NCBI RefSeq assembly: GCF_007556815.1
Contig: NZ_CP041743.1
Location: forward strand, 310,001 to 374,000
Source of the DNA: Paraburkholderia megapolitana
GTDB taxonomy: Bacteria > Pseudomonadota > Gammaproteobacteria > Burkholderiales > Burkholderiaceae
Length of the DNA stretch: 64,000 bases
Direction of reading: 5' to 3'
A program made the translations under genes and the position numbers. This document shows positions 1 to 39,838 of the stretch, in pieces. The number at the start of each line of letters is the position of its first letter. Position 1 is the first letter of the stretch. Under the pieces are notes generated by a model. It was not told the origin of the DNA, did not search any database, and worked only from the letters and a program-made list of their open reading frames with translations.

Positions 1-1500
1 CAGCGCTCGTGCTCAGGTCGTTGCCGTTGCCCAGAACATCGGCATTCGGGCTTTCCACAACCTTGTTTTCATCGCCAACGAGGTTGCTGCCACCACTCTT
101 GTCCAGGTTGTTCTGGTTACCCACGACGCCAGCGTTCGCGCTGTCAGCCAGCGTGTTCCCGTCACCGTGGACGTTGCTGTCGGCACTCTTGCTCAGATCG
201 TTGCCATTACCCAGAACATCAGCCCTCTCGCTCTCCACGAGCTTGTTGCCATCGCCAACGAGGTTGCTGCCACCACTCTTGTCCAGGTTGTTCTGGTTAC
301 CCACGACGCCAGCGTTCGCGCTGTCAGCCAGCGTGTTCCCGTCACCGTGGACATTGCTGTCGACACTCTTGCTCAGATCGTTGCCATTACCCAGAACATC
401 AGCCCTCTCGCTCTCCACGAGCTTGTTGCCATCGCCAATCACCTTGCTGTCTGCGCTCTTGTCCAGGTTGTTCTGGTTACCCACGACACCCGCACTCGTG
501 CTGTCAGCCAGCGTGTTGCCATCACCGTGGACGTTGCTGTCCCCACTCTTGTTCAGGTCGTTTCCGTTACCCAGAACGTCGGCGCGCGCGCTCTCCACGA
601 GCTTGTTGCCATCGCCAACCACCTTGCTGTCGGCACTCTTGTCCAGGTCGTTCTGGTTACCCAGCACACCGGCATTCGCGCTATCAGCCAGCGTATTCCC
701 GTCACCGTGGACATTGCTGTCAGCACTCTTGTTCAGGTCGTTGCCATTCCCCAGAACGTCGGCATTCGGGCTCTCCACAACCTTGTTTTCGTCACCAACG
801 AGGTTGCTGCCACCACTCTTGTCCAGAGCGTTCTGGTTACCCACGACACCCGCATTCGCGCTATCAGCCAGCGTGTTCCCGTCACCGTGAACGTTGCTGT
901 CAGCACTCTTGTTCAGGTCGTTGCCATTCCCCAGAACGTCGGCATTCGGGCTCTCCACAACCTTGTTTTCGTCGCCAACGAGGTTGCTGCCACCACTCTT
1001 GTCCAGGTTGTTCTGGTTACCCACAACGCCCGCATTCGCACTGTCAGCCAGCGTGTTTCCATCACCGTGGACGTTGCTGTCGGCACTTCCGCTCAGGTCG
1101 TTGCCATTACCCAGAACGTCGGCATTCGGGCTCTCCACAACCTTGTTTTCGTCACCAACGAGGTTGCCGCCACCACTCTTGTCAAGGTTGTTCTGGTTAC
1201 CCACGACACCCGCATTCGCGCTATCAGCCAGTGTGTTCCCGTCACCGTGGATGTTGCTGCCCGCACTCTGGCTCAGGTTGTTGCCGTTACCCAGAACGTC
1301 AGCATTCGGGCTCTCCACAACCTTGTTTTCGTCACCAACGAGGTTGCCGCCACCACTCTTGTCAAGGTTGTTCTGGTTACCCACGACACCCGCATTCGCG
1401 CTATCAACCAGTGTGTTCCCGTCACCGTGGATGTTGCTGCCCGCACTCGTGCTCAGGTCGTTACCGTTACCCAGAACATCGGCGTTCGGGCTCTCCTTGA
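1..1500. repeat. tandem 180-bp repeat with nested 45-bp period
   Basis: Near-identical blocks recur every 180 bp (compare 61, 241, 421, 601, 781, 961, 1141, 1321), giving a little over eight copies within the window. On the minus strand each block encodes four 15-residue subunits, so a 45-bp period is nested inside. Copies differ by scattered substitutions, and the phase is conserved throughout. The array continues past the left edge. Confidence 0.95.
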
Positions 1501-2257
1501 CCTCATTCTCGCCGCCGACGACAGTGCCAATAGGGCTCGCGTCAATCCTGTTCGCGCCGATATTAGTTACTTGTGGGCTATCTTGTATAACTGAACCCGG
1601 GCTCAAATTAGTGACTTCAGGACTATTCTCCCTGATTGCCCCATCAAGATTTCTCTGGATATCATTGACCTGATTTTGAGTTCTCGTCAGATCATTTTGA
1701 ACCTGATTGGCCAAGCTCTGTGCATTATTAGCCGTATCCCGCGCAGTATTGGCCGTATTCCGTGCAGTGTTGGCCGTATCCCGTGCAGTGTTCGCTGTAT
1801 CCCGTGCACTGTTCGCTGTATCCCGTGCAGTGCTCGCTGTATCCCGTGCACTGTTCGCTGTATCCCGTGCACTGTTCGCTGTATCCCGTGCAGTGCTCGC
1901 CGTATTCTGTGCAGTGCTCGCCGTATTCTGTGCAGCGTTCGCCGTATTCTGTGCAGCGTTCGCCGTATTCTGTGCAGCGTTCGCCGTATTCTGTGCAGCG
2001 TTCGCCGTATTCTGTGCGGCGTTCGCTGTATTCTGGACATTTACTGCTCCCTGTATATCCCTCTCTACGCAGTCGAGTGCGGCGCCTACCGAGCCCCCAG
2101 TCACCAAGTCTCTAGGAGATGGAAATAGTCCGCCGCCAAATGGGCCCGGATCCACAAGTTCAGATCTACAATTCACTGCCATTACAGATGAAGAAAAACC
2201 TCCCAACGCGAGTATCGTTGACGCACTTAACAATAACGGAATAATTTTCACCGACAT
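1..2257 (-). CDS. large secreted repeat protein, probable adhesin passenger (N-terminal part, cut by left edge)
   Basis: Reading leftwards from an ATG at 2257 there is one open frame to the window edge, about 752 codons with no stop. Residues 1-27 form a Sec signal peptide (basic start, PLLLSASTILALGG core, cleavage after VMA). Residues about 75-180 are roughly 14 Ala-rich heptads (AQNTANA, ARDTANS), a likely coiled coil, followed by a Gln/Asn-rich helical linker. From about residue 250 a 15-residue motif repeats without interruption, of the form NLVGDENKVVESPNA or DVLGNGNDLSTSAGS, with four variants making a 60-residue unit. Such G-N-x-N-L repeats suggest a parallel beta-roll as in YadA-type heads. 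The extended ESPR signal seen in the 35317-39717 adhesin is absent. Next to a TpgA-like lipoprotein, a trimeric autotransporter is the best guess, but the anchor domain would lie outside the window, so the family is not proven. Confidence 0.8.
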   Translation of the reverse strand, partial: MSVKIIPLLLSASTILALGGFSSSVMAVNCRSELVDPGPFGGGLFPSPRDLVTGGSVGAALDCVERDIQGAVNVQNTANAAQNTANAAQNTANAAQNTANAAQNTANAAQNTASTAQNTASTARDTANSARDTANSARDTASTARDTANSARDTANTARDTANTARNTANTARDTANNAQSLANQVQNDLTRTQNQVNDIQRNLDGAIRENSPEVTNLSPGSVIQDSPQVTNIGANRIDASPIGTVVGGENEVKESPNADVLGNGNDLSTSAGSNIHGDGNTLVDSANAGVVGNQNNLDKSGGGNLVGDENKVVESPNADVLGNGNNLSQSAGSNIHGDGNTLADSANAGVVGNQNNLDKSGGGNLVGDENKVVESPNADVLGNGNDLSGSADSNVHGDGNTLADSANAGVVGNQNNLDKSGGSNLVGDENKVVESPNADVLGNGNDLNKSADSNVHGDGNTLADSANAGVVGNQNALDKSGGSNLVGDENKVVESPNADVLGNGNDLNKSADSNVHGDGNTLADSANAGVLGNQNDLDKSADSKVVGDGNKLVESARADVLGNGNDLNKSGDSNVHGDGNTLADSTSAGVVGNQNNLDKSADSKVIGDGNKLVESERADVLGNGNDLSKSVDSNVHGDGNTLADSANAGVVGNQNNLDKSGGSNLVGDGNKLVESERADVLGNGNDLSKSADSNVHGDGNTLADSANAGVVGNQNNLDKSGGSNLVGDENKVVESPNADVLGNGNDLSTSA
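1734..2040. repeat. tandem 21-bp repeat encoding Ala-rich heptads
   Basis: About 14 head-to-tail copies of a 21-bp unit, in two sequence classes: GTATTCTGTGCAGCGTTCGC-type near 1900-2030 and GTATCCCGTGCACTGTTCGC-type near 1734-1900. On the minus strand they encode AQNTANA and ARDTANS heptads of the secreted protein. The repeat lacks spacers and is not CRISPR. Confidence 0.93.
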
Positions 2258-2707
2258 ACCGCCGACGTGATCACATTCGATCGACGTTGGGAAGGGACCA
2301 CTCATCGAGATACGATCCGATATGGATATGCTCCCCGACGAAGGCGCACGATCCAGTTCAGATACCGCAACAAAAGAGCACGAAGCCTTATTCCAGGCAG
2401 TTTTATAAATTCTGTTCATATCTACATAAAATCCATAGAATTCACATCTCGAATAAATTTAACAGACGTTAAAATCCAAACAAGATGCGAATATATATTC
2501 AAATAAATAAAAATTCGGCGAAATACATCGGTGAATGTTTTTCACAAAACCCGTCTTTATGAGGCGAAACGCGTGCCCGCAGAAAATCCCACCCAAGGCG
2601 AAGCAGTTCTTTTATGCTTCCATCGGATACTGTGACAACATTCACTAAATAGTCAGGACGATGATTCGCCCGGGTACGTTAGACGTAGATATTTCCGGTC
2701 ATCGAGA
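2258..2707. promoter_or_regulatory. AT-rich intergenic region upstream of the repeat protein
   Basis: This 450-bp gap separates the TpgA-like lipoprotein from the repeat gene. The stretch 2400-2520 is much richer in A+T than flanking genes and probably carries the promoter of the repeat gene. I could not pick a convincing -35/-10 pair. Short plus-strand frames here look non-coding. Confidence 0.4.
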
Positions 2708-3508
2708 TCACATAACACCAGTAATAGAAACCGAAACCCTTCGATCAGGCGCAAGACAGGCGATCGCGGAGGAGCCATTTCCCGGCCCGCAGTGCGATAC
2801 AGGTTGACTGGAGCCCACGCCTGCTACGCTGACAAGATGCCGGTTTACCCCTTTCGAGACGAGAAAGTTACGAACCGCGGTCGCCCGAGCAAGTGAAAGT
2901 TTGTAATTCGACGACAGAGAACCGATACGGTCGGTATGACCAACAATATGGACCCGAACCAGCTTGTTATATTTCCCTATGTGGGTAACCAGGTTGTCCA
3001 GTGCTTCGAGGCCGTCGGGTTGCATGTCGTCAAGATCCGATTTTCCGAACGGAAATAACGCATCGCTACGCATGGTGAGCTGCTCGACATTCTCAACCTC
3101 GACCTGCTTTTCTATCTTTGGTGTAATGGGCGTGGATGAGGTATGCAGAAAATCAGCACACGACGGATCGCGCCATTGAACACCGCTGACTTTTTTATCC
3201 TCGCCGAACGCCACCTGATACTGACAACTGACCACCTGATCTGCAGATCGAAAATTGAACAAATAATTCCAGGTACGCACCCCGAAGACGCTTTCATTAA
3301 AATGAGGTGCACCAATCAGGTTATAAACCTGATCCTTTGACAAACCGGCGCCAACATTCCGGAGATTATCCACATTGACAAATATTCCTTCGGCCATGGT
3401 TGCCGATTTCACGTCTGGAAATGAGCCAGCAGGATTATTTCCCGCACAACCCGCCAACATCGCCATGAGCCCACTTGCAAACAACGTATAAATCAGGTTA
3501 TTTTTCAT
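2708..3508 (-). CDS. TpgA-like lipoprotein: BamE/SmpA-like domain plus OmpA peptidoglycan-binding domain
   Basis: 266-residue lipoprotein. The start at 3508 is preferred over 3523 because AAGGA lies four bases upstream and the signal peptide then begins MKNNLIYTLFASGLM, ending in the lipobox LAGC. Residues about 45-115 resemble SmpA/OmlA/BamE (GLSKDQVYNLIGAP). Residues about 145-260 are an OmpA C-terminal domain with the peptidoglycan-binding pattern (VGHTDRIGS, LSLARATAVRNFL, DRRVSV). This pairing of domains is that of TpgA, which ties the trimeric autotransporter AtaA of Acinetobacter to peptidoglycan. The gene lies 450 bp upstream of a huge secreted repeat protein on the same strand, which fits that role. 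A general BamE/OmpA-type envelope lipoprotein is the alternative. Confidence 0.85.
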   Translation of the reverse strand: MKNNLIYTLFASGLMAMLAGCAGNNPAGSFPDVKSATMAEGIFVNVDNLRNVGAGLSKDQVYNLIGAPHFNESVFGVRTWNYLFNFRSADQVVSCQYQVAFGEDKKVSGVQWRDPSCADFLHTSSTPITPKIEKQVEVENVEQLTMRSDALFPFGKSDLDDMQPDGLEALDNLVTHIGKYNKLVRVHIVGHTDRIGSLSSNYKLSLARATAVRNFLVSKGVNRHLVSVAGVGSSQPVSHCGPGNGSSAIACLAPDRRVSVSITGVM

Positions 3509-3939
3509 AAAGTCCTTATTCATTTAATAACAAAAAATTCAATCAACGCATCAGTCCATATTCGATTCATGTGTAATACCGCGAGGTTACTCATCGCACG
3601 GCGCCGCCCATCCGGCCGATATAGCGACCAGGGGAGGATTTTTAAGCTGAGATCGAAAACTTCGATGGTGGTGAGGAAGCGCTTTGTTGATCCCAACCCA
3701 ACCAGTGGCACATGCTAGCCACCCGGTTAGCAGGCATCTATAGGACTGCTCTGATAACGGGGAGCATCAATAAAATTGGCCAAGCGAAGAGGGCACGTCA
3801 GAAAGCGGAAAATAAGCCGCGTGAGAACACTGGAAAGGTGCTTGATTGCATCACGCAAAAAACTGGTGCCGTGACGACGCAACCGACATTGCCTCGATCC
3901 GGTGAATGACATCCGCTCAATGCACTCATATGCGCCGAC

Positions 3940-4231
3940 GTGGCAAACGTCGTGCTGCCCGGTGGCATGCACGACGCGTCTCTGAGGCCGGGATGTTATG
4001 CGCTTGCGCACAGCGGTACGGCAGCACTCAGTCTCAATGTGCGGCGGGTATCGATTGCATTTACCGCCGGTTCAATTGTGGGGTCGCTGCTTGCCGGCAT
4101 CGCGATGAAAGCGCCAGGTAGCGATATACCGAGGTGACCGTTCGCTATGCTAAGCGGCGCGCTGACTGCTTATGCGCTCGGACTACATGAAGACCGGAGT
4201 CAGCCCGGAAGTTCGTCTTCGTCGGGCTGAG
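3940..4231 (+). pseudogene. possible remnant of a membrane-protein gene
   Basis: One plus-strand frame reads a hydrophobic stretch (SIAFTAGSIVGSLLAG), stops at TGA 4135-4137, then continues in the same frame with a second hydrophobic stretch (AMLSGALTAYALGL) to a stop at 4229. This could be the decayed C-terminus of a multi-pass membrane protein with an in-frame nonsense codon. I cannot name the family, and chance is not excluded. Confidence 0.2.
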
Positions 4232-4238
4232 CCGGTTC
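4210..4238. other. inverted repeat CAGCCCG/CGGGCTG
   Basis: Seven-base arms flank a 15-base loop just downstream of the speB stop. There is no U-tract on either strand, so terminator function is doubtful. Confidence 0.25.
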
Positions 4239-4254
4239 TAAAACAGGGGAAACG

Positions 4255-5217
4255 TTAGCGCGCCCCAACTTTCTGCTGCCGCCACAAGCACAACACATCG
4301 CAAGCAATATGCGCAGCCGCGAGCGCGGTGATCTCGCTCTGATCGTACGCGGGTGCGACCTCCACAACATCGGCACCGACCAGATTCAGCGCCCCAAGTC
4401 CACGCACGATCGCCAGCCCCTGCGCCGACGACAACCCGCCCGCCACCGGCGTACCGGTACCCGGCGCGAAAGCCGGATCGAGGCAATCGATATCGAAAGT
4501 CAGATACGCCGGCCGCATACCGACGATCGACACAATACGCTCCACCGCGGCACGCACACCATGCTCGTGCACCCAGGCAGCATCAAGAATATTGATGCCC
4601 AGAAAATCGTCGTTCCATGTACGGATACCGATCTGTACCGACGTAGCCGGATCGATCAATCCATCCTTCACCGCCTTGTAGAACATCGACCCATGATTGA
4701 GGCTATCGGGACTGTCGTCGGCCCACGTATCGCAGTGCGCGTCGAAGTGAATCAGCGATAGCGGCTTGCCGTACTTCTCCGCATGCGCGATCAGCAGCGG
4801 ATACGTGATGTAGTGATCGCCGCCGAACGTCAGCATCTTCGCGTTCGAACGCAGGATCGTGCGTGCGTGTTCGACGATGGCGGGTTTGATCGTCAGCGGG
4901 TTGTGCGCGTCGAACCAGCAATCGCCGTAGTCGGTCACGGCGAGGTCGTCGAACGGATTGAAACCCCATGGGTACGGATGCAGCTCCGAGAGTTGCACGC
5001 TCGCCGCCCGCACCGCCGCGGGCCCAAGGCGCGCACCCGAGCGAAAGGTAGTGGCGAGGTCGAGCGGTACGCCGGACACGACGGCATCGACGCCGTCGAG
5101 GTCGCGCGTATAGCGTCGTCGCATGAACGACAGCACGCCCGCATAAGTGTTTTCGATCGAGGAGCCGTAAAGGGACGGACGGCGTATTGCGCCGTCGCCA
5201 TAGAGCAGTTCGGTCAT
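4255..5217 (-). CDS. speB: agmatinase / ureohydrolase family protein
   Basis: 320 residues, normal for the ureohydrolase family, which hydrolyses agmatine (or a related guanidino compound) to putrescine and urea using two Mn ions. All metal-ligand motifs are visible: GGDH (H135), DAHCD (D159, H161, D163) and FDIDCLDPAFAPGTGTP (D242, D244). It is the last gene of the minus-strand group puuR-puuC-speB and follows puuC after 134 bp. Its place in a putrescine-degradation cluster supports agmatine as substrate. Guanidinobutyrase or guanidinopropionase activity cannot be excluded from sequence. Confidence 0.85.
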   Translation of the reverse strand: MTELLYGDGAIRRPSLYGSSIENTYAGVLSFMRRRYTRDLDGVDAVVSGVPLDLATTFRSGARLGPAAVRAASVQLSELHPYPWGFNPFDDLAVTDYGDCWFDAHNPLTIKPAIVEHARTILRSNAKMLTFGGDHYITYPLLIAHAEKYGKPLSLIHFDAHCDTWADDSPDSLNHGSMFYKAVKDGLIDPATSVQIGIRTWNDDFLGINILDAAWVHEHGVRAAVERIVSIVGMRPAYLTFDIDCLDPAFAPGTGTPVAGGLSSAQGLAIVRGLGALNLVGADVVEVAPAYDQSEITALAAAHIACDVLCLWRQQKVGAR

Positions 5218-5351
5218 GGAGTGAACCTGCAGGAACAGGCCGGCGGTATGCGTTGCTTCTTAGTGAGCATACCGGCCGGCGACGGATTCATTGGGAACGC
5301 GGCGGTGCACGCATCACATGGCGCATACCGCCGCGCTGGCGCGCGAATCCT

Positions 5352-9188: not shown

Positions 9189-10523
9189 ATGCATGAGATC
9201 GACGAATTCCTGAAGAAGCATCGCATCACCGAGATCGAAGCGATCATCCCCGACATGGCGGGTATCGCGCGCGGCAAGATCATTCCGCGCAGCAAGTTCG
9301 AATCCGGAGAATCGATGCGCCTGCCCCAGGCCGTGATGATCCAGACCGTTACCGGCGACTATCCGGAAGACGGCACGCTCACCGGCGTCACCGATCCCGA
9401 CATGGTGTGCGTCCCCGATCCATCCACTATCCGCATCATCCCGTGGGCCGTCGATCCTACCGCACAGGTCATTCACGATTGTGTTCACTTCGACGGTACG
9501 CCGGTCGAAATCTCGCCGCGCCGCGTGCTGCGCCGCGTGCTCGAGTTGTACAAGGCGAAGGGCTGGAAGCCGGTCGTCGCACCGGAGCTCGAGTTTTATC
9601 TCGTCGACATGAACAAGGACCCGGACCTGCCGCTACAACCGCCGATCGGCCGTACCGGTCGTCCGGAAACCGGACGCCAGGCGTATTCGATCGAAGCGGT
9701 CAACGAGTTCGATCCGCTCTTCGAAGACATCTACGAGTACTGCGACGTTCAGGAACTGGAAGTCGACACGCTGATCCACGAAGTGGGCGCCGCGCAGATG
9801 GAAATCAACTTCATGCACGGCGATCCGCTCAATCTCGCCGACCGCGTGTTCCTGTTCAAGCGCACGGTGCGCGAGGCGGCGCTGCGGCATCACATGTACG
9901 CGACGTTCATGGCAAAGCCGATGGAAAACGAACCCGGCTCGGCCATGCACATCCACCAGAGCCTCGTCGACGAGGAAACCGGTCAGAGCGTCTTCACCGG
10001 CCCGGACGGCAAACCGACCGAGCTGTTCCACAGCTACATCGCCGGGCTGCAGAAATACACCCCCGCGTTGATGCCGATCTTCGCGCCGTACATCAACTCG
10101 TATCGCCGGCTGTCGCGCTTTATGGCCGCGCCGATCAACGTGCAGTGGGGTTACGACAACCGCACGGTCGGCTTCCGCATTCCGCATTCGGGACCGGCCG
10201 CGCGCCGTGTCGAGAACCGCATTCCTGGCGTGGACTGCAATCCGTACCTCGCGATCGCCGCCACGCTGGCGGCCGGTTATCTCGGCATGACCCAGAAGCT
10301 CAAGCCCACCGAACCGCTCACCACCGACGGCTACGAACAGCCTTACCAGTTGCCGCGCAATCTCGAAGAGGGACTGACCTTGATGGGCGCCTGCGAACCA
10401 ATGGCCGGCATTCTCGGCGAACCGTTCGTCAAGGCGTACCTCGCCTTGAAGGAAACCGAATACGGTGCGTTCTTCCGCGTGATCAGTTCGTGGGAACGCC
10501 GGCATCTGCTGCTGCACGTCTGA
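9189..10523 (+). CDS. puuA: gamma-glutamylputrescine synthetase
   Basis: 444-residue glutamine-synthetase-fold ligase that condenses glutamate with putrescine using ATP. It has the N-terminal PuuA-like start (IPDMAGIARGKIIPRSKF) and the glutamine synthetase catalytic elements PELEFYL, GAAQMEINFMHGDPL, GSAMHIHQSL and NRTVGFRIPHSGPAARRVENRI. A ribosome site (GAGAG) precedes the ATG. It is the committing step of the gamma-glutamyl pathway and sits between puuD and the aminotransferase. Other polyamines as substrate are possible, as for Pseudomonas PauA enzymes. Confidence 0.9.
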   Translation: MHEIDEFLKKHRITEIEAIIPDMAGIARGKIIPRSKFESGESMRLPQAVMIQTVTGDYPEDGTLTGVTDPDMVCVPDPSTIRIIPWAVDPTAQVIHDCVHFDGTPVEISPRRVLRRVLELYKAKGWKPVVAPELEFYLVDMNKDPDLPLQPPIGRTGRPETGRQAYSIEAVNEFDPLFEDIYEYCDVQELEVDTLIHEVGAAQMEINFMHGDPLNLADRVFLFKRTVREAALRHHMYATFMAKPMENEPGSAMHIHQSLVDEETGQSVFTGPDGKPTELFHSYIAGLQKYTPALMPIFAPYINSYRRLSRFMAAPINVQWGYDNRTVGFRIPHSGPAARRVENRIPGVDCNPYLAIAATLAAGYLGMTQKLKPTEPLTTDGYEQPYQLPRNLEEGLTLMGACEPMAGILGEPFVKAYLALKETEYGAFFRVISSWERRHLLLHV

Positions 10524-35316: not shown

Positions 35317-38300
35317 TTACCACTGATAGGAAGCGCCTGCTCCGTACACGCTTCCTGCTGCGCCCGAACTCACGCCACCTCTCACGTTAATGTTGCCCGT
35401 GACGCGAGCAGTAAATCCGATGGCAAGCGCAGCGTAGCCCTGGTAGACACCGGTCCCGACTCCCACAGACACCGTCTTTCCTGGGTCTACTCCTGGGATC
35501 ATCGCCAGCGCAGTCGCGGCGGCGACACCCGAATACGCTTTACGCGCGACGCCATTCACGTGGTCCTGCACGGCGTTCAATTGCCCCATGTTGACGGCAT
35601 CGGTTCGATTGACGCCAGGCGCAACGTTCGCGACCCGTCGCTCGTTGCCTGGGGCCCCCACCGAGACGGTATTGGCTTGATCGGCAACCGAGCCACTTCC
35701 CAACGCGACAGCGTTTGGTGCTGTCACCGACGAGTTTGTGCCGATCGCGGTTCCATCGTTAGCCGATACGGACGAATTCTGACCAATCGCCGTGCTGTTA
35801 GCCCCGGTTGCCTTTGCGCTTTCACCGAGCGCCGTGCTATTGGGCGCCGAGGCAACGGAGTTCTGCCCGAGCGTGCTGCTGTTCGCTCCTGTCGAATTGC
35901 CGAGCTTCTCGTTGTTACTGGAAAGATTCTTCGACAGCGCAGCGACATCGTTACTGGTGTTGCTCAGGGCGGTCGTCAACGAGTCGAGTCCCGCCGATGT
36001 CGAGGTGGACAGGGAAGCGACTTCGCTGTTGGTGGCGTCCAGGCCCGTCGACAGCGACGCTACGTTGCTGTTGGTCGTCGACAGTTCTGTTGTTAGCGAA
36101 TCGACATCGCTTTTTACGTTACTGATACCTGTGGATGCCGAGGTAGACAGCGATGCCATGTTGCTGTTCGTGCTGTCCAGGCTGGTCGACAGTGAGCTGA
36201 GGCCCGTCGACGCCGAGGTGGAAAGTGCGGCGACATTGCTGTTGGCTGTGTCCAGACCTGTCGACAGCGATGCCACGTTGTTGTTGGTCGTGTTCAAACC
36301 CGTCGACAGTGAACCGAGTCCGGTCGAGGTCGTGGTGGACAACGATGCGACATTGTTGTTGGTGGTATCCAGACCTGTCGACAGCGATGCGACGTTGTTG
36401 TTGGTTGTGTCCAGACCCGTCGACAGTGAGCTGAGGCCGGTCGACGTCGTTGTCGACAGCGAAGCCACGTTGCTGTTGGTCGTGTCCAGTCCAGTCGATA
36501 GCGAGCTGAGGCCAGTCGATGTCGTCGTCGACAGCGAAGCAACATTGCTGTTGGTCGTGTCCAGTCCGGTCGACAGCGAGCTGAGGCCAGTCGAGGTCGT
36601 CGTCGACAGCGAAGCCACATTGCTGTTGGTCGTGTCCAGACCCGTCGACAGCGAGCTGAGGCCAGTCGAGGTCGTTGTCGACAGCGAAGCCACATTGCTG
36701 TTGGTCGTGTCCAGACCCGTCGACAGCGAGCTGAGGCCGGTCGACGTCGTCGTCGACAACGAAGCGACATTGCTGTTAGTCGTGTCCAGACCCGTCGACA
36801 GCGAGCTGAGGCCGGTCGACGTCGTCGTCGACAGCGAAGCCACGTTGCTGTTGGTCGTGTCCAGTCCAGTCGACAGCGAGCTGAGGCCAGTCGAGGTCGT
36901 TGTCGACAGCGAAGCCACATTGCTGTTAGTCGTGTCCAGACCCGTCGACAGCGAGCTGAGGCCGGTCGACGTCGTCGTCGACAGCGAAGCCACATTGCTG
37001 TTAGTCGTGTCCAGACCCGTCGACAGCGAGCTGAGGCCGGTCGACGTCGTCGTCGACAGCGAAGCCACGTTGCTGTTGGTCGTGTCCAGTCCAGTCGACA
37101 GCGAGCTGAGGCCGGTCGACGTCGTCGTCGACAGCGAAGCCACATTGCTGTTGGTCGTGTCCAGTCCAGTCGACAGCGAGCTGAGACCGGTCGACGTCGT
37201 CGTCGACAACGAAGCCACATTGCTGTTGGTCGTATCCAGACCCGTCGACAGCGAGTTGAGGCCAGTCGAGGTCGTCGTCGACAACGAAGCCACATTGCTG
37301 TTGGTCGTATCCAGACCCGTCGACAGTGAACTAAGGCCAGCCGACGTCGTCGTCGACAGCGATGTGACATTGCTGTTGGTCGTGTCCAGACCCGTCGATA
37401 GTGAGCTGAGGCCAGTCGAGGTCGTCGTCGACAGCGATGCAACATTGCTGTTGGTCGTATCCAGACCCGTCGACAGCGAGCTGAGGCCGGTCGACGTCGT
37501 CGTCGACAGCGATGCGACATTGCTGTTGGTCGTGTCCAGTCCAGTCGATAGCGAGTTGAGGCCAGTCGATGTCGTCGTCGACAGCGAAGCCACGTTGCTG
37601 TTGGTCGTGTCCAGACCCGTCGACAGTGAGCCGAGCCCTGCCAACGTCGAGGTGGACAGCGAGGCGACATTGCTATTGGTCTCCGACAGGCCGGTCGACA
37701 GCGAGTTGACACCGCTTTGCGCGGTGCTGATACCGGTGGAAGTCGAGGTAGATAGCGACGTCAATTGCTGATAGTTAACCGCATCAGTTGCATTGACACC
37801 ATCGGCCACATTGGTCAGGACCACGGGTGCCGTGGAACTGGTGCCACCCAACGTAACCTTGGTATGGTCCGCGTCGTCATACTGGACGGAGTTGGCTACA
37901 CCCGTCGACAGCGATGCGACATTGCTGTTGGTGGTGTCCAGGCTGGTCGATAGTGAGCTAAGCCCTGCTGTCGAGTTGGCAACGCCCGTCGACAGCGAGG
38001 CAAGATTGCTATTGGTCTCCGACAGGCCAGTCGACAGTGAGTTGACACCGCTTTGCGCGGTACTGATACCGGTGGAGGCCGAGGTCGACAGCGACGCGAC
38101 GTTACTGTTGGTCGTGTCCAGACCCGTCGACAGTGAGTTGAGGCCAGTCGAGGTCGTCGTCGACAACGAAGCCACATTGCTGTTGGTCGTATCCAGCCCC
38201 GTCGACAGTGAGCTAAGGCCGGTCGAGGTCGTCGTCGACAACGAAGCCACATTGCTGTTGGTCGTATCCAGCCCCGTCGACAGTGAGCTAAGGCCGGTCG

Positions 38301-39717
38301 AGGTCGTCGTCGACAACGAAGCCACATTGCTGTTGGTCGTATCCAGCCCCGTCGACAGTGAGCTGAGGCCGGTCGAGGTCGTCGTCGACAACGAAGCAAC
38401 ATTGCTGTTGGTCGTGTCCAGACCCGTCGACAGTGAGCTGAGGCCAGTCGATGTCGTCGTCGACAACGACGCCACATTGCTGTTGGTCGTGTCCAGACCG
38501 GTCGACAGTGAGCTGAGGCCGGTCGAGGTCGTCGTCGACAACGAAGCAACATTGCTATTGGTCGTGTCGAGTCCGGTCGACAGTGAGCTGAGGCCAGTCG
38601 ACGTCGTCGTCGACAACGAAGCAACATTGCTGTTAGTCGTGTCCAGACCCGTCGACAGTGAATTGACACCGCTTTGGGCGGTGCTAATACCGGTGGAGGC
38701 GGAGGTCGACAGCGAGCTAAGGCCAGTCGACAGTGAGTTGACACCGCTTTGCGCGGTGCTGATGCCTGTAGAAGTTGACGTAGACAGCGAAGCCACGTTG
38801 CTGTTGGTGGTGTCCAGTCCAGTCGACAGCAAGTTGACCGCCGTACTGGTCGCAAACAGCTGCGAGCCATTGACCGCATCGGTGCTACCTGTCGTGATCC
38901 GGCCCGCGGCCACGTTTGTGATCTGGCGTTCGGTGCCCGTGGCGCCGACCGATACCACGCCCGTCGGCGCACCTCCGGCGAAGTCGTAGTTCTGCCCTCC
39001 AACCACTCCGCTCGCAGTGGCAATGGCCGCCGCAGTGAGCGAGTTGCTACCGAGCGCTACGGAGTTGAGCGTCGAGGCAGACGCGTTGGCGCCCAACGCC
39101 AGCGAAGATCCCTCTCCCGCCCACGCCCCAGATCCGAGGGCAGTAGACTGAGTTCCGAGCGCTCTCGCCAAAGATCCAAGGGCAGTCGACTGGCTTTCGG
39201 ACGCTGTCGCCAAGACTCCGAGGGCAGTCGAGTTGGAACCGAGCGCTTTCGCCGAAGCTCCGAGGGCAGTTGAGCTGGTTCCCAGCGCGCTCGCCCCGGA
39301 TCCGATGGCAGTCGTGAATTCTTGCGACGCTGTCGCACCGGTTCCAAGGGCAGTCGTATTATTGGCGAGCGCTCTCGCACCGTTTCCGAGGGCAGTTGCC
39401 TGAGTTCCGGACGCTGTCGCACCGACTCCTATGGCAGTCGAGTTTACTCCAGACGCTGTTGTCGACGAGACATTCGTCGAGGTTGACGGCTCGCATCCAA
39501 TGGCAATCGCACCAGTCGCAGCATCCGGAGCAAACCCGTTCCCCGCCTTGTATTGAGCCTCCGCAGTACCCGCATACCCCCCAAAAATCAACACCGCAGC
39601 CGTCACGGCCTGAACAATCGCAGACTTATTCGGCTTGCCTCTCGCCGAAGCAATTTCCGACACGGCAGTCCAGGCGCCAAGCGATTCATTCCATACGCTT
39701 CGATATGCTCGATTCAT
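35317..39717 (-). CDS. trimeric autotransporter adhesin (YadA family)
   Basis: 1466 residues. The ATG at 39717 is chosen because AGGAG precedes it and the protein then begins with an ESPR-type extended signal (MNRAYRSVWNESLGAWTAVS). A YadA-like head (ATALGNGARA-type repeats) spans about 60-230 and a neck (TDAVNGSQLF) lies near 285. The stalk consists of two blocks of 25-residue repeats (SLSTGLDTTNSNVASLST core), split by another neck-like segment (DGVNATDAVNYQQL). A second short head (NSTALGESAKATGANSTAIG), a neck (RTDAVNMGQLNAVQ) and a YadA anchor ending in Trp (GAGASYQW) complete it. It mediates adhesion or autoaggregation at the outer membrane. Opposite-strand long frames are shadows. Confidence 0.95.
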   Translation of the reverse strand: MNRAYRSVWNESLGAWTAVSEIASARGKPNKSAIVQAVTAAVLIFGGYAGTAEAQYKAGNGFAPDAATGAIAIGCEPSTSTNVSSTTASGVNSTAIGVGATASGTQATALGNGARALANNTTALGTGATASQEFTTAIGSGASALGTSSTALGASAKALGSNSTALGVLATASESQSTALGSLARALGTQSTALGSGAWAGEGSSLALGANASASTLNSVALGSNSLTAAAIATASGVVGGQNYDFAGGAPTGVVSVGATGTERQITNVAAGRITTGSTDAVNGSQLFATSTAVNLLSTGLDTTNSNVASLSTSTSTGISTAQSGVNSLSTGLSSLSTSASTGISTAQSGVNSLSTGLDTTNSNVASLSTTTSTGLSSLSTGLDTTNSNVASLSTTTSTGLSSLSTGLDTTNSNVASLSTTTSTGLSSLSTGLDTTNSNVASLSTTTSTGLSSLSTGLDTTNSNVASLSTTTSTGLSSLSTGLDTTNSNVASLSTTTSTGLSSLSTGLDTTNSNVASLSTTTSTGLNSLSTGLDTTNSNVASLSTSASTGISTAQSGVNSLSTGLSETNSNLASLSTGVANSTAGLSSLSTSLDTTNSNVASLSTGVANSVQYDDADHTKVTLGGTSSTAPVVLTNVADGVNATDAVNYQQLTSLSTSTSTGISTAQSGVNSLSTGLSETNSNVASLSTSTLAGLGSLSTGLDTTNSNVASLSTTTSTGLNSLSTGLDTTNSNVASLSTTTSTGLSSLSTGLDTTNSNVASLSTTTSTGLSSLSTGLDTTNSNVTSLSTTTSAGLSSLSTGLDTTNSNVASLSTTTSTGLNSLSTGLDTTNSNVASLSTTTSTGLSSLSTGLDTTNSNVASLSTTTSTGLSSLSTGLDTTNSNVASLSTTTSTGLSSLSTGLDTTNSNVASLSTTTSTGLSSLSTGLDTTNSNVASLSTTTSTGLSSLSTGLDTTNSNVASLSTTTSTGLSSLSTGLDTTNSNVASLSTTTSTGLSSLSTGLDTTNSNVASLSTTTSTGLSSLSTGLDTTNSNVASLSTTTSTGLSSLSTGLDTTNSNVASLSTTTSTGLSSLSTGLDTTNSNVASLSTTTSTGLSSLSTGLDTTNNNVASLSTGLDTTNNNVASLSTTTSTGLGSLSTGLNTTNNNVASLSTGLDTANSNVAALSTSASTGLSSLSTSLDSTNSNMASLSTSASTGISNVKSDVDSLTTELSTTNSNVASLSTGLDATNSEVASLSTSTSAGLDSLTTALSNTSNDVAALSKNLSSNNEKLGNSTGANSSTLGQNSVASAPNSTALGESAKATGANSTAIGQNSSVSANDGTAIGTNSSVTAPNAVALGSGSVADQANTVSVGAPGNERRVANVAPGVNRTDAVNMGQLNAVQDHVNGVARKAYSGVAAATALAMIPGVDPGKTVSVGVGTGVYQGYAALAIGFTARVTGNINVRGGVSSGAAGSVYGAGASYQW
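36300..37650. repeat. 75-bp tandem repeat, stalk block 2 of the adhesin
   Basis: About 18 head-to-tail 75-bp units (for example matching blocks begin near 36484, 36559 and 36634). Each encodes 25 residues. Hydrophobic spacing 4-3-4-3-4-4-3 fits two heptads plus one hendecad of a trimeric coiled coil. Confidence 0.92.
38090..38690. repeat. 75-bp tandem repeat, stalk block 1 of the adhesin
   Basis: About eight further copies of the same 75-bp unit. They are separated from the other block by roughly 440 bp encoding a neck-like module and variant repeats (NSLSTGLSETNSN). Confidence 0.9.
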
Positions 39718-39838
39718 TTCCACTCCTAGATGGTGAATATCCTTTCGGGCGCCCAGATCGCGTGTCAATCTATCGATCTAAAAATCGCGATACCCTCGGC
39801 GCGGTCTTTTCCTTCTCGTCGCATCGTGTCCAGTCGAA

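What the first reader, a model, noticed from the sequence alone, without database searches (positions are those of the whole stretch)
1..3508. TpgA-like lipoprotein beside a giant repeat protein: a candidate two-component adhesin system
The lipoprotein at 2708-3508 combines a BamE/SmpA-like domain with an OmpA peptidoglycan-binding domain, the layout of TpgA, which anchors a trimeric autotransporter to the cell wall in Acinetobacter. Here it lies upstream of a secreted protein with heptads and beta-roll repeats but without an ESPR signal. The pairing suggests an adhesin system of unusual passenger design and gene order (accessory gene first).
Basis: partly seen in the sequence, partly recalled or inferred. 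Interest (0 to 1): 0.75.

Follow-up and report, generated by a model that had tools for sequence, protein, structure and literature searches.

The report
Giant adhesin with cell-wall tether partner
A Paraburkholderia bacterium carries a giant surface adhesin together with a small lipoprotein that probably ties the adhesin's outer-membrane anchor to the cell wall; this kind of pair is already known, but here the helper gene comes before the adhesin gene, which is uncommon.

Summary
The core of the finding holds. The gene just upstream (2708-3523, minus strand) encodes a BamE+OmpA protein whose N-domain is nearest, among solved structures, to TpgA-N of the AtaA-TpgA complex 9VNJ. It has a lipobox, unlike Acinetobacter TpgA, and keeps the expected peptidoglycan-binding Asp and Arg. 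Gene order is uncommon but not unique: of 63 full-length BamE+OmpA loci surveyed, 52 have the TAA first, 6 the accessory first (this one, a four-member clade in another genus, one tpgA-TAA-broken-tpgA locus) and 5 no adjacent TAA. The same genome has a second pair in the usual order. The cassette sits between an MFS gene and speB, neighbours in 21 of 29 relatives examined. Against a working pair: this TAA alone among 58 paired barrels lacks the acid of one AtaA-TpgA salt bridge; its barrel's place is unresolved (the larger tree puts it nearer barrels without accessory); and the lipoprotein's profile fits the genome's other paired TAA better.

The parts
1..2419 (-). N-terminal 806 residues of a 1,864-aa trimeric autotransporter adhesin; the gene continues left of the window to position -3175 (G000:C1:306825-312419)
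   Evidence: YadA_anchor at residues 1804-1864, YadA_head with two matched stretches, the best at 1705-1729
2342..2419 (-). ESPR (extended signal peptide region), TAA residues 1-26
   Evidence: Pfam PF13018, 28.9 bits, cut-off 25
1739..2032 (-). heptad (coiled-coil-like) array, TAA residues 130-227, 14 motif-matched units
   Evidence: lag-7 identity 0.76 over residues 127-250; 21-bp tandem array, 15 copies
1..1516 (-). first part of the 15-residue beta-roll-like repeats (60-residue super-repeat), TAA residues 302 onward, passing to a 14-residue period near residue 1530 left of the window
2420..2707 (-). 288-bp AT-rich spacer (39% G+C) between accessory stop and TAA start; no sigma-70-type consensus found in 2300-4300, terminator-like sites there 5 against 2.3 (sd 1.6) in shuffles, one of them in the spacer
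2708..3523 (-). TpgA-like lipoprotein, 271 aa
3446..3448 (-). lipobox cysteine C26 (LAGC)
   Evidence: sequence; C26 in 10 of 10 rows of A1, in at least 90% of 52 rows of A2
3182..3388 (-). BamE-like domain, residues 46-114; nearest solved chain 9vnj_B (TpgA-N)
   Evidence: E 7e-14
2774..3058 (-). OmpA C-terminal-like peptidoglycan-binding domain, residues 156-250; D198 and R213 kept in 63 of 63 rows
3952..4220 (+). decayed second copy of the 3' end of the MFS gene that lies left of the TAA (intact copy at -3679 to -3411), about 80% identical, with an in-frame stop and an indel
4255..5217 (-). agmatinase-type gene (speB; name from my reading, no family search made), right-hand neighbour of the inserted cassette

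Best explanation
An AtaA/TpgA-type two-component adhesin anchor. Proposed mechanism: the TAA is exported by Sec through its ESPR signal peptide, trimerises, inserts its YadA/Hia-type barrel in the outer membrane and displays a very long beta-roll fibre. The lipoprotein is lipidated at C26 and sorted to the outer membrane (Ala at +2; sorting rule recalled), its BamE-like domain binds the periplasmic turns of the barrel, and its OmpA domain holds peptidoglycan, so that pulling force on the fibre is passed to the cell wall and the barrel resists extraction; it may also help surface display. Shown here: open frames, domains, homology to TpgA-N, conserved peptidoglycan residues, adjacency, and that such pairs are the rule in relatives. 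Inferred: lipidation, binding to this TAA, peptidoglycan binding, force role, expression. The cassette was probably gained between the MFS gene and speB; by parsimony the accessory-first order arose at least twice.
For: Domains and open frames. N-domain best solved relative is TpgA-N in the AtaA complex, E 7e-14 against 5e-3 for the best BamE chain; full length, the best NCBIfam hit is TpgA (138 bits). The residues that I match to TpgA K64/D65 (placed by me on the printed 9vnj_B alignment) are kept; the barrel has R at the K3576 position. Peptidoglycan D/R pair in 63 of 63. TAA adjacent at 58 of 63 full-length loci. Across 58 pairs the accessory and barrel distance matrices correlate (rho 0.50; 0 of 999 permutations as high), though shared ancestry of the genomes also raises this. 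Accessory tree: window sister to 20 TAA-first rows, set of 21 at 98/97. Barrel tree of 41 rows: window with 11 of the 12 barrels paired with BamE-type accessories, 94/84, just under the starred level. Of the genome's nine TAAs only the window's and the C3 one have a barrel whose distance profile agrees with the lipoprotein's (0.39 and 0.70; the other seven 0.04 or less). Low G+C of accessory (49%) and spacer (39%) against 60% for the window, and MFS-speB neighbours in 21 of 29 relatives, fit a gained cassette. Functional precedent: TpgA of Acinetobacter Tol 5 binds AtaA and peptidoglycan and aids display (PMC5861075, passages; PMC13082670, parts 1, 3 and 5 of 5 read).
Against: The TAA has Ala at the AtaA D3601 position; 57 of 57 other paired barrels, and 3 of 3 beside BamE-only accessories, have Asp or Glu there, so one of the two reported salt bridges cannot form as described. 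By identity the barrel is about equally near to paired and unpaired ones (means 55.4% and 54.7% over the last 77 columns). In the 81-row tree the best placing is a starred group (95/80) with the 20 unpaired barrels, 7 TAA-first and 4 accessory-first ones, apart from the Paraburkholderia/Burkholderia paired clade; holding it with that clade costs 2.1 log units (p-AU 0.256, not rejected), holding it with the unpaired clade 20.7 (p-AU 0.11, not rejected). Over 178 C-terminal residues (neck included) the TAA is nearest to TAAs of which the 20 examined have no accessory in about 2 kb of flank. The lipoprotein's profile fits the C3 TAA's barrel better than its neighbour's (0.70 vs 0.39). The NCBIfam TpgA model scores 138 bits, far under its cut-off of 350. 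The 288-bp spacer and lack of RNA data leave co-transcription open.
Confidence: 0.65

Rival explanations
1. Partner mismatch: the lipoprotein is a TpgA paralogue that serves the C3 TAA (or a lost TAA), and its place before this TAA is a by-product of the insertion or rearrangement; this TAA stands on its own, like Paraburkholderia TAAs without an accessory.
For: C3 barrel fits the lipoprotein's profile better (0.70 vs 0.39); acid lost at the D3601 position; none of 20 TAA loci chosen from the best 38 matches to the TAA's 178-aa C-terminus has a TpgA-like ORF (own HMM, E up to 0.01) in about 2 kb of flank; the 81-row barrel tree leans away from the paired clade; accessory-first is uncommon (6 of 63); a decayed duplicate of the MFS end shows that the place was rearranged.
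Against: The C3 TAA already has its own accessory directly downstream. Adjacency on one strand is unlikely by chance. No clear TAA remnant was found in window 3400-5300 with 41 barrels and three whole TAAs as queries (best E 0.025, inside the speB frame). Accessory-first pairs exist elsewhere as a clade of four.
Confidence: 0.22
2. General envelope protein: the lipoprotein is an ordinary OmpA/Pal- or BamE-type factor with no tie to the adhesin.
For: Both domains are common; the OmpA half alone matches many OmpA, YiaD and Pal families.
Against: The combination is found beside TAAs at 58 of 63 loci; of 369 genomes of the class 38 had any match at E<=1e-25, and apart from G000 only two genomes (three loci) matched over nearly the whole model; N-domain nearer to TpgA-N than to BamE.
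Confidence: 0.07
3. Decaying cassette: both genes are open but no longer expressed or no longer interact after insertion.
For: Long end branches of both proteins (accessory 0.66; barrel 0.57 and 0.63), interface Ala, decayed MFS copy beside it, no promoter consensus.
Against: Both frames are open although one is 1,864 codons long and repetitive; D/R, K/D, lipobox, ESPR and anchor are kept.
Confidence: 0.06

Closest known systems
AtaA-TpgA of Acinetobacter sp. Tol 5 (complex 9VNJ)
   Same: TAA plus BamE-like + OmpA-like accessory in adjacent genes; N-domain sequence relation E 7e-14; peptidoglycan residues and K/D pair kept
   Different: TpgA of Tol 5 is encoded downstream and reported not to be a lipoprotein (PMC5861075, passages); here upstream, with a lipobox; the barrel is nearer to Hia (2e-16) than to AtaA (0.018) and lacks the D3601 acid
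TAA-tpgA-like pairs of Paraburkholderia and Burkholderia (e.g. the C3 pair of the same genome, L039; L032, whose accessory is identical to P0007 of P. phenazinium)
   Same: same domain make-up, lipobox, about 48% identity, sister branch in the accessory tree
   Different: TAA first in all 20 rows of that sister clade
Accessory-first clade of genus g274 (L126, L127, L143, L145) and L128 of g285
   Same: BamE+OmpA accessory directly upstream of a YadA-anchored TAA
   Different: separate branch (100/99); the five TAA frames are shorter, 509-1,381 aa; L128 also has a broken second accessory after the TAA
SadA-SadB of enterobacteria
   Same: TAA with a lipoprotein helper
   Different: SadB is an inner-membrane trimeric lipoprotein without similarity to TpgA (PMC8151025, passages)

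Membership tests
Trimeric autotransporter adhesin (type Vc) | C-terminal YadA-type anchor | tested here: met
   PF03895, 54.1 bits, cut-off 22.7; Hia barrel 2gr8 E 2e-16
Trimeric autotransporter adhesin (type Vc) | Sec signal, often with ESPR | tested here: met
   PF13018; hydrophobic stretch ending VMA at residue 81 by eye; no signal-peptide program was run
Trimeric autotransporter adhesin (type Vc) | YadA-head or neck and coiled-coil parts | tested here: met
   PF05658, two matched stretches; heptads
Trimeric autotransporter adhesin (type Vc) | trimeric, surface displayed, adhesive | not testable with these tools
   needs experiment
TpgA family | BamE-like N-domain related to TpgA-N | tested here: met
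   9vnj_B E 7e-14; PF04355
TpgA family | OmpA C-terminal-like domain with peptidoglycan-binding Asp/Arg | tested here: met
   PF00691; D and R in 63 of 63; their role is recalled from OmpA work, not from a call
TpgA family | gene adjacent to a TAA | tested here: met
   upstream, not downstream
TpgA family | score over NCBIfam TpgA equivalog cut-off | tested here: not met
   138.4 vs 350 bits; two TAA-adjacent relatives, L039 and L127, also fall short (129.9 and 173), so it is called TpgA-like, not TpgA
TpgA family | both salt-bridge sites at the barrel interface (K3576-D65, D3601-K64) | tested here: inconclusive
   K/D kept on the accessory, R for K3576, Ala for D3601
TpgA family | binds TAA barrel and peptidoglycan | not testable with these tools
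   structure prediction switched off

The most novel reading that the evidence does not exclude
Accessory-first order is a recurrent second architecture of TAA tethers, reached independently in at least two lineages, in which a lipid-anchored tether is made before the giant fibre; and within Burkholderiaceae the TAA tether is modular: the barrel-contacting N-domain, the OmpA domain and the lipid anchor are gained, lost or swapped together with the barrel type (BamE only; BamE+OmpA; an unrelated Cys-rich N-domain + OmpA beside another barrel type).
Probability: 0.3. Interest if true: 0.5.

Novelty: new member of a known kind. Interest (0 to 1): 0.32.

Why it matters
It extends a force-bearing adhesin tether known from Acinetobacter to a probably lipid-anchored, accessory-first pair in Paraburkholderia, and gives natural variants (no acid at one salt-bridge site, with or without lipid anchor, with or without the OmpA half) with which the role of each hold can be tested. 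Most of it is a known kind of system.

Tried and rejected
Rejected: LPXTG, RTX or T1SS substrate (YadA anchor found). Rejected: unique gene order. Looked for and not found: a TAA remnant upstream of the lipoprotein gene that would show a simple tandem duplication; OmpA remnants behind the BamE-only accessories of L041 and L042. For L046 that same tblastn also showed none, yet one search lists a separate 215-aa OmpA-domain ORF on the other strand right behind it (9496-10140), so the tblastn was not fully sensitive. Relatives of the passenger repeats (residues 280-1480): none at E<=1e-20 among 8,000 scored candidates, which says little for such biased sequence. A genome-contig scan with the lipoprotein gave one OmpA-only match. 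Partner matching by distance profile pointed first to the C3 TAA and is reported as evidence against. An early impression that L045 lacks a TAA (narrow query) was wrong: one search finds one. Mobility genes in the flanks were not searched for by family. Print: searches (of open-licence PMC papers); no listed title, abstract or passage that I saw describes accessory-first order. Papers seen: PMC13082670 parts 1, 3 and 5; passages of PMC7688925, PMC8151025, PMC6604945, PMC6363060, PMC5861075; all others as listings. Two key works (Yoshimoto 2025; Dorison 2026 preprint) are known to me only as references in PMC13082670: the first is not held, preprints are not held.
Full report
WHAT IS THERE. The window is G000:C1:310001-374000. 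Its first 2,419 bases encode, on the minus strand, the N-terminal 806 residues of a 1,864-residue protein whose gene runs left to window position -3175. Pfam finds an ESPR at residues 1-26 (28.9 bits, cut-off 25), two YadA-head stretches (best 1705-1729) and a YadA anchor at 1804-1864. Order of parts: ESPR and signal peptide; 14 heptads (residues 130-227); a beta-roll-like array with 15-residue period and a 60-residue super-repeat (identity at lag 60: 0.87 over residues 281-800, 0.84 over 801-1400); more divergent 15-residue and then 14-residue repeats; neck and barrel.

Upstream of it, 288 bp away, lies a 271-aa ORF (2708-3523, minus) with BamE and OmpA domains and a lipobox LAGC26. Its N-domain is nearest to chain B of 9VNJ, TpgA-N in complex with the AtaA barrel (E 7e-14; BamE chains 5e-3 and weaker). 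The best NCBIfam family is TpgA at 138 bits, under the cut-off of 350; an accessory in the usual order (L039, 130 bits) and one of the other accessory-first clade (L127, 173 bits) also miss it. I call it TpgA-like.

WHICH ORGANISM. A same-genus relative's accessory (L032, G007) is identical over 264 residues to P0007, named Paraburkholderia phenazinium, and L037 (G081) is 98.9% identical to P0011, P. kururiensis; hence Paraburkholderia.

HOW COMMON. In 97 genomes of the genus (own one included), 14 have a match to the lipoprotein at E<=1e-30. In 398 genomes of the family, 41 match the alignment at E<=1e-55; in 369 of the class, 38 match at E<=1e-25, and apart from G000 only G261 (two loci) and G370 over nearly the whole model. 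I fetched 15 genus loci and 60 more. Left out: two 480-bp contig-end matches (G535:C4, C5). Of these 75 plus the window, 63 ORFs are full-length BamE+OmpA; dropped from the count are BamE-only, OmpA-only, two-part and broken ORFs (L041-L046, L124, the second ORFs of L120 and L128, L158-L163). Order in the 63: TAA first 52 (ten of them from the by-hand look), accessory first 6, no TAA adjacent 5 (L119, L120, L148, L151, L154; L148 is at a contig start). The six are the window, L126, L127, L143, L145 (one genus, g274) and L128 (g285), where an open accessory precedes the TAA and a second, broken one follows. The accessory tree puts the window as sister to 20 TAA-first rows (set of 21 at 98/97) and the g274 four in a clade of their own (100/99), so by parsimony the order arose at least twice; L128 may be a third case. 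Some genomes give several of the 63 rows. The window's own genome has a second pair in the usual order (C3:3386802-3387593 behind the anchor at C3:3387661).

IS THIS TAA THE PARTNER? For: adjacency; a two-matrix comparison over 58 pairs gives rho 0.50 with 0 of 999 permutations as high (genome ancestry alone may give part of it); among the nine TAAs of the genome only the C3 one (0.70) and the window's (0.39) fit the lipoprotein's profile, the other seven being 0.04 or less. In a 41-row barrel tree the window joins 11 of the 12 barrels paired with BamE-type accessories (94/84), and 20 barrels of TAAs without a found accessory form another clade (95/98). Against: the C3 barrel fits better than the neighbour's; by identity the window's barrel is as near to unpaired as to paired barrels (means 54.7% and 55.4%); in an 81-row tree the best placing is a starred group (95/80) with the 20 unpaired barrels, 7 TAA-first and 4 accessory-first ones, while neither the paired clade (2.1 log units worse, p-AU 0.256) nor the unpaired clade (20.7 worse, p-AU 0.11) is rejected; and at the position of AtaA D3601 the window TAA has Ala while 57 of 57 other paired barrels have Asp or Glu. 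That position is one of two salt bridges described for AtaA-TpgA (K3576-D65 and D3601-K64; PMC13082670, part 3 read). The residues matched to K64 and D65 are kept, and K3576 is Arg. These sites do not mark partners cleanly: 18 of 20 unpaired barrels also have the acid.

HOW IT WOULD WORK. By analogy with AtaA-TpgA, where the accessory binds barrel and peptidoglycan, aids display (PMC5861075, passages) and in simulation about doubles the extraction force (PMC13082670, abstract and part 1). The OmpA domain keeps the Asp/Arg pair that holds peptidoglycan in OmpA (role recalled; residues in 63 of 63). TpgA of Tol 5 is reported not to be a lipoprotein. Here the lipobox suggests a third hold, in the outer membrane. 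A rough motif count finds a lipobox in 40 of 63 accessories (L143 is by eye a miss of the motif search). Of the 23 without one, 16 stand beside barrels of a 20-row clade that by eye is AtaA-like (my count).

HOW IT GOT THERE. In 21 of 29 genus loci with a close speB match, an MFS gene lies directly convergent with speB (the 29 best besides the own one were kept as loci, of 47 matching genomes, own one included). In the window's genome the TAA and accessory lie between them, and a decayed second copy of the MFS 3' end (3952-4220, about 80% identical by my count of the printed alignment, with a stop) lies on the speB side. G+C is 49% for the accessory, 57% for the TAA, 60% for the window and 62-63% for speB and MFS. 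This fits gain of the cassette; whether the MFS end was duplicated or brought along is open. I did not search the flanks for mobility genes by family.

SIDE FINDING. Three accessories in the genus sample (L041, L042, L046) have only the BamE domain; L046 has a separate OmpA-domain ORF on the other strand right behind it (9496-10140), L041 and L042 show no OmpA remnant within about 3 kb. Three others (L043-L045) have the OmpA domain behind a Cys-rich N-domain (no Pfam match besides OmpA in the two tested, L043 and L044), and L043 and L044 stand behind TAAs of a different barrel type (L045's barrel was not compared). The accessory's N-domain seems to follow the barrel type, on few cases.

VERDICT. 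A real, open TpgA-like/TAA pair in the less common order. The kind of system is known; print already lists TAA-TpgA-like pairs in Burkholderia and other genera. Interaction with this very TAA is likely but not shown.

Noticed in passing
L041:8866-9354, L042:8896-9363, L046:8656-9402: TAA accessories made of the BamE-like domain alone, directly after TAAs whose barrels belong with the TpgA-paired ones; L046 also has a separate OmpA-domain ORF on the other strand at 9496-10140.
   Followed up: partly
L043:8566-9390, L044:8683-9474, L045:8383-9429: TAA accessories with an OmpA domain behind an unrelated Cys-rich N-domain; L043 and L044 follow TAAs of another barrel type, as if the adaptor domain is swapped with the barrel.
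   Followed up: partly
L128:7183-12849: accessory - TAA - broken second accessory on one strand; a possible intermediate between the two gene orders.
   Followed up: partly
window 3952-4220 and L073:10321-10589: Imperfect direct repeat (3' end of an MFS gene) flanking the TAA-accessory cassette; MFS and speB are neighbours in 21 of 29 relatives examined.
   Followed up: yes
G000:C1:878623-883500 (L070): Two TAAs in tandem with closely similar barrels; nine YadA anchors in this genome in all.
   Followed up: no
plasmid records: TpgA-like proteins (31-48% identity in the 30 rows listed) on 69 plasmids, 51 of them Escherichia, often annotated OmpA family or BamE; the E. coli, Salmonella and Burkholderia ones were not fetched.
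   Followed up: no
window 35320-39777 (G000:C1:345320-349777): A second TAA lies inside the window, frame of 1,486 aa on the minus strand with a YadA anchor at its low end; no TpgA-like ORF found in the fetched flanks (L071).
   Followed up: partly
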